Below are positions 1 through 62,762 of a stretch of DNA of 64,000 bases, in pieces. Positions within the stretch are counted from its first letter, which is position 1; every line of letters begins with the position of its first letter. This DNA is from Candidatus Aenigmatarchaeota archaeon (GTDB lineage: Archaea > Aenigmatarchaeota > Aenigmatarchaeia > GW2011-AR5). Both the position numbers and the translations under genes were made by a program. Location: NCBI GenBank assembly GCA_016193585.1, contig JACPRW010000008.1:1-64000 (forward strand), given 5' to 3'. The notes under the pieces were generated by a model. That model was not told the DNA's origin and did not search any database. It saw only the letters and a program-made list of their open reading frames with translations.

Positions 1-140
1 CACCTTGTATTACTTCCTTGTTTGCTATATGTGAAGCAAATGTATAATATCGGTATTATTTATTTGCTTCACTATAACGCGCAATTTTCTATAGGTGAAT
101 TGCAAATAATATCAGGACATAACCAGTGCAATTCACCATA
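1..140. repeat. Composite palindrome cluster 1 (part H, D, C)
   Basis: Starts inside an H element cut by the window edge (TTACTTCCTTGTTTGCTATA, 10-29). Then comes a full D palindrome (about 30-76, arms GTGAAGCAAAT and ATTTGCTTCAC), the short linker AACGCGCAATTTTCTATA, and a full C palindrome (94-137, arms GGTGAATTGCA and TGCAATTCACC). The same order recurs at 48.5 kb and 38.4 kb in the other orientation. Not protein coding. Confidence 0.85.
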
Positions 141-264
141 TTTAAGATTAGCCGGCATATAAGGCATGATACCTGTGGATGGCGCATCAGACCGTTTCCT
201 TGCCGAAGCCAACCAGCGCTACGAAACGCTTTCTGGACTGGTGCAACGCTATCCTGCGGCATGA

Positions 265-28410: not shown

Positions 28411-28477
28411 ATCAGCGCCTCCAACATTCTGACTCTATCTGTTCTCTGTGAAATGAATTTTTGGCCCAGACAAATAT

Positions 28478-28572
28478 ATGGTGAATTGCACTGGTTATGT
28501 CCTGATATTATTTGCAATTCACCTATAGAAAATTGCGCGTTAATACGACATAAGCTGCGCAATTATCTATAT
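28478..28572. repeat. C and K palindromes
   Basis: C arms GGTGAATTGCA (28480-28490) and TGCAATTCACC (28512-28522) enclose CTGGTTATGTCCTGATATTATT. Then the tail TATAGAAAATTGCGCG joins a K arm, ATACGACATAAGCTGCGC with AATTATCTATA. K recurs in reverse at 45930. The rest of the gap, to 28677, shows nothing I recognise. Confidence 0.82.
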
Positions 28573-38166: not shown

Positions 38167-38516
38167 AGCTGGGTGGGAGAGTCGAACTCCCTTATCCGGC
38201 TCTCTGCATAAGGGCAAGAACCTAAGGTTCTCGCCCTTATCAACCCCACACTCCTAGGTATATAGCGGACCAACAAAAGAATACCGACATATTACTTTTG
38301 TTGTCCGCTACACGCGGAAAACAACGTTTTCCGGTGCACCAAAAAGCTTTGCTTTTTGCGTGTAAGTGAACCAAGATATAATACCTGATTATTTACTTGG
38401 TTCACTATATGTCCTGATATTATTTGCAATTCACCTATAGAAAATTGCGCGTTATAGTGAAGCAAATAAATAATACCGATATTATACATTTGCTTCACAT
38501 ATTCTGCCAACCCAGC
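38167..38516 (-). tRNA. Interrupted tRNA gene, probably tRNA-Cys (GCA)
   Basis: The 5' end GCTGGGT (38510-38516) pairs perfectly over 7 bases with ACCCAGC (38168-38174), followed by discriminator U. A full T arm is present (GGGAG-TTCGACT-CTCCC). The anticodon part reads TGCAGA with U33 and GCA; GCA and U73 both point to Cys. Between GGCAGA of the D arm and CCTAGGAGTGT, which would complete it, lie about 245 bases of D, C, B, module and A elements (38259-38502). A second insert, an ATAAGGGC...GCCCTTAT hairpin, sits in the anticodon arm. The variable region (GGATAA) is one base longer than usual. Whether the RNA matures is unknown. Confidence 0.55.
38259..38502. repeat. Composite A - module - B - C(half) - D inside the tRNA gene
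   Basis: Order on the plus strand: A (38264-38309), twin-hairpin module with outer stem CACGC...GCGTG (38311-38362; hairpins GGAAAAC-AAC-GTTTTCC and AAAAAGC-TTT-GCTTTTT around GGTGCACC), B (38365-38406), right half of C with tail, and D (38456-38498). The A-B joint is the filled version of the joint at 23308. Confidence 0.88.
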
Positions 38517-45924: not shown

Positions 45925-46163
45925 GTTTGCTATAGATAATTGCGCAGCTTATGTCGTATTATAGCAATACAAGGAAATAAACACGATACGAGGAGAATCG
46001 AAGATTCTCCTGTACAGGTGGATTCATGGAATCCACCTTGTATTACTTCCTTGTTTGCTATACATGGTGAACTTTACCATGTATGTGAAGCAAATGTATA
46101 ATATCGGTATTATTTATTTGCTTCACTATAAAAGTTCCATTATTATTACAATCTGCTATAAAT
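45925..46163. repeat. Composite K - H(with module) - D - half E1
   Basis: K (45930-45960), then H (45961-46063) whose loop holds hairpins GGAGAATC-GAA-GATTCTCC and GGTGGATTC-ATG-GAATCCACC joined by TGTACA. Next are a short ATGGTGAACTTTACCAT hairpin, D in reverse (46080-46130), and a half E1 ending CAATCTGCTATA. The E1 half cuts into a small Cys-rich reading frame. Confidence 0.85.
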
Positions 46164-48530: not shown

Positions 48531-48790
48531 ATATGGTGAATTGCACTGGTTATGTCCTGATATTATTTGCAATTCACCTATAGAAAATTGCGCGTTATAG
48601 TGAAGCAAATAAATAATACCGATATTATACATTTGCTTCACATACATGGTAAAGCAAAGCTTTACCTGTACAGGTGAAACGTTGTTTCACTCCTCGTATC
48701 GTGTTTATTTCCTTGTATTGCTATAACCGCAATCTGCTATATGGAAAGAACATTGTAAAATGTTCCAAAATCAATGTTCTTTACTATTAG
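48531..48790. repeat. Composite C - D - module - part H - E2
   Basis: C (48534-48580), linker, D (48598-48643), then hairpins GGTAAAGC-AAA-GCTTTACC and GTGAAAC-GTT-GTTTCAC around TGTACA, the right half of H (TCGTATCGTGTTTATTTCCT...), a piece of E1 and full E2 (48742-48788). The stop TAA of the methyltransferase gene is at the E2 edge. Bases 48438-48530 show only a T-rich stretch. Confidence 0.85.
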
Positions 48791-52379: not shown

Positions 52380-52592
52380 CTTTCGTCGCTTTCTTTATTA
52401 TGCAATTTTTCTTTCTTTGCTCAGAAACCAAAGTTTCTGGCATGCCAAAATGCGCTGCACATAGCCGGGTGCCATGTTATTTTTCTTTTCCCAAGGCTTT
52501 TCTTTTTCTAAAAGAAAAGGCTTAAAGAAAAGGGCCTACATTGTGTGATTGGTATACAATCGCACAAGTTGTGAAGATGGAATCTTCACAAC
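52380..52592. repeat. Long intergenic repeat plus twin-hairpin module
   Basis: 52423-52470 (TTTCTTTCTTTGCTCAGAAA, then CC..GTTTCTGGCA and GCCAAAATGCGCT) is shared with 62600-62660. The T-rich end TTTTCTTTTTCTAAAAGAAAAGG is also shared. 52542-52592 is a module: hairpins GTTGTGAAGAT-TCC-ATCTTCACAAC and GTGCGATTG-TATAC-CAATCACAC. The uL30 stop codon lies in the arm of the first hairpin. The A-rich/T-rich hairpin may work as a terminator. Confidence 0.75.
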
Positions 52593-62480: not shown

Positions 62481-62762
62481 CCATTTTATGCATAAACACT
62501 CCGTGTTTATCAGCTTCTCCGAAGCCGGAATTTAGTCAGTTCCTGAACCTCCGGTTTACTTCACCTTTTTATTACCATTTTCTTTTTGAACCCAAACCCG
62601 TTTTTCTTTCTTTGCTCAGAAACCACGGTTTCTGGCAATGCCAAAATGCGCTACATTTTGTGCATTAAACCCAAGGGCGTTTTTCTTTCTTTAAACCCAG
62701 GTCGTTTTTCTTTCTTTAAACCCAAGGGCGTTTCTTTCTTTTTCTAAAAGAAAGAAAAGGGC
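62481..62762. repeat. Repeat-rich gap between uL2 and uS19
   Basis: Contains the long intergenic repeat shared with 52.4 kb (about 62600-62660, with CAGAAACC-AC-GGTTTCTG) and three units of AAACCCA..CGTTTTTCTTTCTTT. Also here is CTTTCTTTTTCTAAAAGAAAG at the uL2 end, and CATAAACACTCCGTGTTTATCA (in two parts) near 62490. No gene is visible. Confidence 0.7.

What the first reader, a model, noticed from the sequence alone, without database searches (positions are those of the whole stretch)
38167..38516. A tRNA gene, probably tRNA-Cys, split by a 245-base composite repeat in its D arm
A perfect 7-bp acceptor stem, U73, a full T arm and a GCA anticodon segment are separated by repeat elements between the D-stem halves, and a further 32-base hairpin breaks the anticodon arm. 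If functional, the precursor needs removal of a large D-arm insertion, which would be an unusual splicing task or a new role for these elements as self-structured introns. If not, the organism needs another tRNA-Cys.
Basis: partly seen in the sequence, partly recalled or inferred. Interest (0 to 1): 0.85.

Follow-up and report, generated by a model that had tools for sequence, protein, structure and literature searches.

The report
Broken tRNA-Cys gene filled with MITEs
In a tiny symbiont-type archaeon, the only detectable gene for the cysteine transfer RNA has lost its middle, anticodon included, and carries a stack of small mobile DNA repeats there, so it looks like a broken gene rather than an oddly spliced one, though the missing working copy leaves a real puzzle.

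Summary
On the minus strand, nt 1-14 (38516-38503) and nt 38-73 (38201-38167) of a tRNA-Cys flank about 300 nt of foreign sequence, with perfect acceptor and T stems. But the D-stem 3' half, the 5' half of the anticodon stem and the anticodon are absent. The "GCA anticodon" (38207-38205) is the 3' end of a position 37/38 intron: GCAG that pairs with CUGC of the real anticodon loop in relatives. The next 58 nt are 86% identical to the intron 3' end of this genome's tRNA-Asp. The remaining 243 nt (38260-38502) are TATA-flanked, nested palindromic MITE-like repeats; a 98% copy of nearly the whole block lies elsewhere in the genome, and one module has 35 copies. Best reading: a tRNA-Cys gene destroyed by MITE insertion plus replacement or deletion, not a D-arm intron. 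The puzzle: CysRS is present, yet no other tRNA-Cys or orphan 5' half was found in the 10-contig assembly (91% estimated complete). A working copy lost from the assembly, a mixed population, or, less likely, a trans-spliced partner remain open. D-arm and T-arm introns appear common in this archaeal family, so that part is not new.

The parts
38503..38516 (-). tRNA-Cys 5' remnant, nt 1-14: acceptor 5' strand GCTGGGT, TG, D-stem 5' strand GCA, GA
   Evidence: Pairs perfectly with ACCCAGC at 38168-38174; identical to nt 1-14 of the relative tRNA-Cys at locus L026
38260..38502 (-). Nested MITE-like repeat block, modules C, B' and A in that order on the minus strand
   Evidence: 98% identical over 239 nt to G000:C3:226932-227170; 42 hits in own genome; TATA at module joints
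38455..38502 (-). Module C: palindrome GTGAAGCAAAT...ATTTGCTTCAC (boundaries approximate)
   Evidence: Other copies in the window at 28-77, 46082-46131 and 48595-48645
38410..38454 (-). Module B' (partial): ACGCGCAATTTTCTATAGGTGAATTGCAAATAATATCAGGACA (boundaries approximate)
   Evidence: Other copies at window 75-141, 28476-28542, 48531-48594; in L101 a whole B sits inside A with a TATA duplication
38265..38405 (-). Module A: 141-nt MITE body GTGAACCAAG...GTTGGTCCGC between TATA and TATA
   Evidence: 13 distinct complete copies read, all 141 nt with TATA on both sides; 35 copies of its left hairpin genome-wide, 0 for the reversed control
38202..38260 (-). 3' part of a tRNA intron at position 37/38, ending GCAG-AG before nt 38; contains the GATAAGGGCGAGAACC..GGTTCTTGCCCTTAT hairpin (38208-38241)
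   Evidence: 86% identical over 58 nt to the 3' end of the tRNA-Asp(GUC) intron of the same genome, G000:C9:4877-4998
38204..38207 (-). GCAG: intron side of the central 4-bp helix of the bulge-helix-bulge; misread as the GCA anticodon
   Evidence: Same place and pairing with nt 32-35 in L023, L024, L026-L028, L030, L031, L036 and own tRNA-Asp
38167..38201 (-). tRNA-Cys 3' half, nt 38-73: A38, GCCGG, ATAA, T arm, acceptor 3' strand, U73
   Evidence: 84-92% identical to tRNA-Cys of relatives; the only tRNA-Cys 3' half in the assembly

Best explanation
This is a dead tRNA-Cys(GCA) gene of an Aenigmatarchaeota-type DPANN archaeon. It once had an ordinary archaeal intron after position 37. Small palindromic MITE-like elements that target TA/TATA entered it; one copy (A) sits exactly at the AT-rich tip of the intron. 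The segment from nt 15 (D loop) through the anticodon to the middle of the intron was then replaced by a C-B'-A repeat block, either by adjacent deletion from an element end or by recombination with the same array elsewhere. Shown: the remnants, intron 3' end, repeat nature and module ends, and absence of the anticodon. Inferred: order of events, mechanism of loss, and that a working tRNA-Cys exists in the cell but is missing from the assembly.
For: Relatives have intact tRNA-Cys, several with a 37/38 intron ending in (G/A)C(A/G)G-NN before A38, as in the window. 38203-38260 matches the tRNA-Asp intron 3' end of the same genome. The 243-nt block is 98% identical to an array at C3:226932 and consists of dispersed modules. 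Element A: 13 of 13 distinct complete copies read are 141 nt between TATA and TATA; B inside A in L101, against uninterrupted A copies, shows insertion with a TATA duplication. No anticodon, no 5' anticodon strand. CysRS is present, so cysteine is decoded.
Against: No other tRNA-Cys was found in the assembly with DNA, pattern or covariance searches. Completeness 90.75% is near the best seen in this family (93%), so the gap may be small. The remnants show little decay: acceptor and T stems are perfect, so the damage is recent or the pieces still serve.
Confidence: 0.66

Rival explanations
1. Assembly effect: the real locus differs (two MITE insertions, or an intact allele in part of the population), and the assembler bridged or chose the repeat-bearing path, dropping the middle as a tiny contig.
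For: Contig tips overlap by exactly 141 nt in at least four pairs, the mark of a k = 141 de Bruijn assembly, and many tips lie in repeats. Both halves of the insert share exact 140-nt stretches with other loci, the longest such a graph can pass.
Against: 140 nt is still below the graph's limit, so the path should be unambiguous. Both junctions are unique sequence and join tRNA-Cys pieces in the right order. Even with a collapse, nt 14 is joined directly to a MITE end, so the D loop would still be interrupted.
Confidence: 0.2
2. Split tRNA: the 3' half here (intron 3' end plus nt 38-73) is transcribed on its own and trans-spliced at 37/38 with a 5' half made elsewhere, the split having been created by MITE insertion.
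For: The split point lies in the position 37/38 intron, as in published split tRNA-Asp (PMC3218864); 3' half and intron 3' end are well preserved; no other tRNA-Cys seen; Nanoarchaeum equitans has split tRNAs (PMC3218864).
Against: No 5' half found by 71-nt DNA search, two patterns, or a 5'-half covariance model; the best hits are in protein-coding frames or at chance level. No intron 5' half without its 3' half was found. A 14-nt 5' remnant still stands upstream of the 3' half.
Confidence: 0.08
3. One reading: a functional cis tRNA-Cys from which a large D-arm insertion and a small anticodon-arm intron are spliced.
For: D-arm introns appear to occur in this genome and family (L104, L105, L025, L023); acceptor and T stems are intact.
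Against: The locus contains no anticodon, no 5' anticodon strand and no D-stem 3' strand to splice together; the block is a mobile repeat, not an intron.
Confidence: 0.02

Closest known systems
tRNA pseudogenes and genes interrupted by MITEs or IS elements in archaea and bacteria
   Same: Conserved ends of a gene separated by short, high-copy, palindromic, TATA-flanked elements that nest in each other
   Different: It is the only tRNA-Cys locus detectable in the assembly, and the coding middle is gone, not merely interrupted
Archaeal split (trans-spliced) tRNAs, e.g. tRNA-Asp of Aeropyrum joined at 37/38 (PMC3218864) and Nanoarchaeum equitans
   Same: A 3' half preceded by the 3' end of a position 37/38 intron with the bulge-helix-bulge partner
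   Different: No 5' half was found, a 5' remnant remains in cis, no expression data
Archaeal bulge-helix-bulge tRNA introns at canonical and noncanonical positions
   Same: The 58 nt before nt 38 belong to such an intron family, shared with tRNA-Asp and tRNA-Ser of this genome
   Different: The repeat block itself is not an intron; the 5' exon part of the splice motif is missing

Membership tests
tRNA-Cys gene remnant | Acceptor stem pairing and tRNA-Cys 3' half sequence | tested here: met
   7/7 bp; 84-92% identity to relatives
functional cis tRNA-Cys | GCA anticodon in a 7-nt loop closed by a 5-bp stem | tested here: not met
   No CCGGC-CTGC partner in the locus; best 8/9 with G-U pairs, chance level
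functional cis tRNA-Cys | D stem with both strands | tested here: not met
   Only the 5' strand GCA remains; nt 15-37 absent
archaeal BHB tRNA intron at 37/38 (3' end only) | Intron -6..-3 pairs with nt 32-35, 2 nt of bulge, then nt 38 | tested here: inconclusive
   3' side matches 9 comparison tRNAs, but its 5' partner is missing here; strict hBHBh' scan failed on positive controls
split tRNA | Separate 5' half elsewhere that completes the tRNA | tested here: not met
   None in the 1.17-Mb assembly; about 9% of the genome may be missing
split tRNA | Expression of both halves and the joined tRNA | not testable with these tools
   No RNA data
MITE | Short, non-coding, terminal inverted repeats, target duplication, many copies | tested here: met
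   141-nt body, ends TATAGTGRACCAA inverted, TATA both sides in 13/13 copies read, 35 copies of the left hairpin
MITE | A related autonomous transposase with the same ends | not tested
   Not searched for

The most novel reading that the evidence does not exclude
MITE insertion into a tRNA-Cys intron has just split the organism's only tRNA-Cys gene, and the cell survives by trans-splicing this 3' half to a 5' half that lies in an unassembled, repeat-bounded piece: a split tRNA caught at birth with its cause still in place.
Probability: 0.07. Interest if true: 0.85.

Novelty: new member of a known kind. Interest (0 to 1): 0.33.

Why it matters
It shows small TATA-targeting repeats destroying an essential-type RNA gene in a reduced archaeal genome. 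It also illustrates how a repeat-interrupted tRNA can be misread as an intron-bearing one: the pairing partner of the anticodon mimics the anticodon itself. If no intact copy exists, how this organism decodes cysteine becomes a direct, testable question bearing on how split tRNA genes arise.

Tried and rejected
ARAGORN and Rfam at gathering threshold find no tRNA in the window. Candidate pieces of a tRNA-Cys 5' half elsewhere (C5:27296, C5:89842, C5:72849, C7:54332-54391) were examined: the first, second and last lie in protein-coding frames and none has the rest of a 5' half. A strict bulge-helix-bulge scan gave 16 motifs in the locus but failed to recover the known introns of the positive controls, so it was discarded. 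An orphan intron 5' half was not found; two intron-3'-like stretches outside tRNAs (C5:107513, C9:58286) are repeats without tRNA sequence. Gene-order support is weak: one relative has mgtE 4.6 kb from tRNA-Cys but in another orientation. Viral contigs hold neither the MITE hairpin nor the intact tRNA-Cys pattern.

Full report
What is there. The window is contig 7 (bases 1-64000) of a 1.17-Mb, 10-contig archaeal genome. The only named relative recovered is a Candidatus Aenigmatarchaeota MAG. Read on the minus strand, 38516-38503 is GCTGGGTTGGCAGA and 38201-38167 is A-GCCGG-ATAA-GGGAG-TTCGACT-CTCCC-ACCCAGC-T. Acceptor and T stems are perfect. Related genomes carry tRNA-Cys(GCA) genes of the same sequence type, some intronless (GCTGGGATGGCAGAGCGGCCATGCGCCGGCCTGCAGAGCCGGATAGGGGAG...), so the isotype is right.

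The anticodon is not there. In relatives with a position 37/38 intron, the intron ends (G/A)C(A/G)G-NN just before A38. Those four nucleotides pair with nt 32-35 (CUGC) of the anticodon loop, as the central helix of the splice motif; the own tRNA-Asp does the same with CUGU. Seven of nine pair 9/9 with the 5' anticodon strand, two 8/9. The true 5' strand (CCGGC-CTGCAG) and nt 15-37 are missing. The best substitute in the locus scores 8/9 with G-U pairs inside a MITE, and windows of that score are expected by chance (frequency 0.0025 per position).

The 58 nt before the exon are intron. 38203-38260 is 86% identical to the 3' end of the tRNA-Asp intron in the same genome, and its inner hairpin also matches the tRNA-Ser intron. 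A G006 tRNA gene appears to carry the same kind of intron in its D loop. D-arm or T-arm introns are also suggested in tRNA-Arg, tRNA-Thr and tRNA-Ser of this genome and in tRNA-Cys of G003, so introns outside the anticodon loop seem ordinary in this family. These assignments are my reading of ARAGORN output, not verified splice sites.

The 243-nt block is mobile repeat. It breaks into module C, part of module B, and module A, joined at TATA. Nearly the whole block (239 nt, 98%) recurs at C3:226932, and parts recur at 42 places in the genome. Modules are found in 16 of 30 related genomes. Element A is 141 nt between TATA and TATA in all 13 distinct complete copies read; its left hairpin has 35 copies against 0 for the reversed control. 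L101 shows element B inside A with the TATA duplicated, against uninterrupted A copies, and L083/L084 show A inside B. The block's right end is a clean A end next to TACCTAGG. The tRNA-Asp intron has TTTTACCTAGG there, at the tip of an AGGTA..TACCT hairpin, so A probably entered the intron tip. The left end joins nt 14 directly to the C palindrome; the outer part of B that usually precedes C is absent. This fits an adjacent deletion from an element end or replacement by recombination with a C-B-A array elsewhere. The order of events is inference.

Is there another tRNA-Cys? CysRS is encoded (C9:101445-102842, 454 bits). A 71-nt tRNA-Cys query, two patterns with mismatches, a full-length covariance model and a 5'-half model found only this locus and chance hits. 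The estimated completeness of 90.75% is close to the best in the family (93%). Contig tips overlap by exactly 141 nt and often lie in repeats, so a gene enclosed by repeats could have dropped out as a tiny contig. The insert's longest exact matches elsewhere are 140 nt, twice: just resolvable at k = 141, but thin support for the join. No reads were available.

Conclusion. The most likely state is a recently broken tRNA-Cys gene with a working copy missing from the assembly. A population mixture or assembly effect is second. A nascent split tRNA is possible but has no positive evidence beyond the missing second copy; published split tRNAs also join at 37/38 (PMC3218864).

Noticed in passing
L108 (G000:C9:4300-5700), 541-896: tRNA-Asp and tRNA-Ser lie side by side with related long introns (GGGTTGATAAGGGAAAGAACCTTAGGTTCTGACC..), as if one intron family has spread between tRNA genes.
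   Followed up: partly
L103 465-800; L104 335-460; L105 about 380-480: tRNA genes with probable introns in the T loop (Ser) and D loop (Arg, Thr), which default tRNA finders miss.
   Followed up: partly
G000:C9:4727, C3:172672, C8:49581, C3:238367, window 38366: Five of 35 copies of the MITE A hairpin lie within about 210 bp of, or inside, a tRNA gene; not tested against intergenic background.
   Followed up: partly
L135 (G000:C5:107513-107565): The tRNA-intron 3' module (CCTAGGAGTTGGGGGTTGATAAGGG..) also occurs outside any tRNA, next to other hairpins, so the intron module itself may be dispersed.
   Followed up: no
L100 (C7:68700-69356) and other contig tips: Several contig tips share a stretch of about 141 nt; at the C7 tip it looks like the 3' end of an IS481/IS3-type transposase gene beside a truncated MITE A. 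The identification is by eye.
   Followed up: no
window 62577-62743 and 52406-52442: T-rich tandem repeats TTTTTCTTTCTTT..AAACCCAAGGGCG, unrelated to the MITEs.
   Followed up: no
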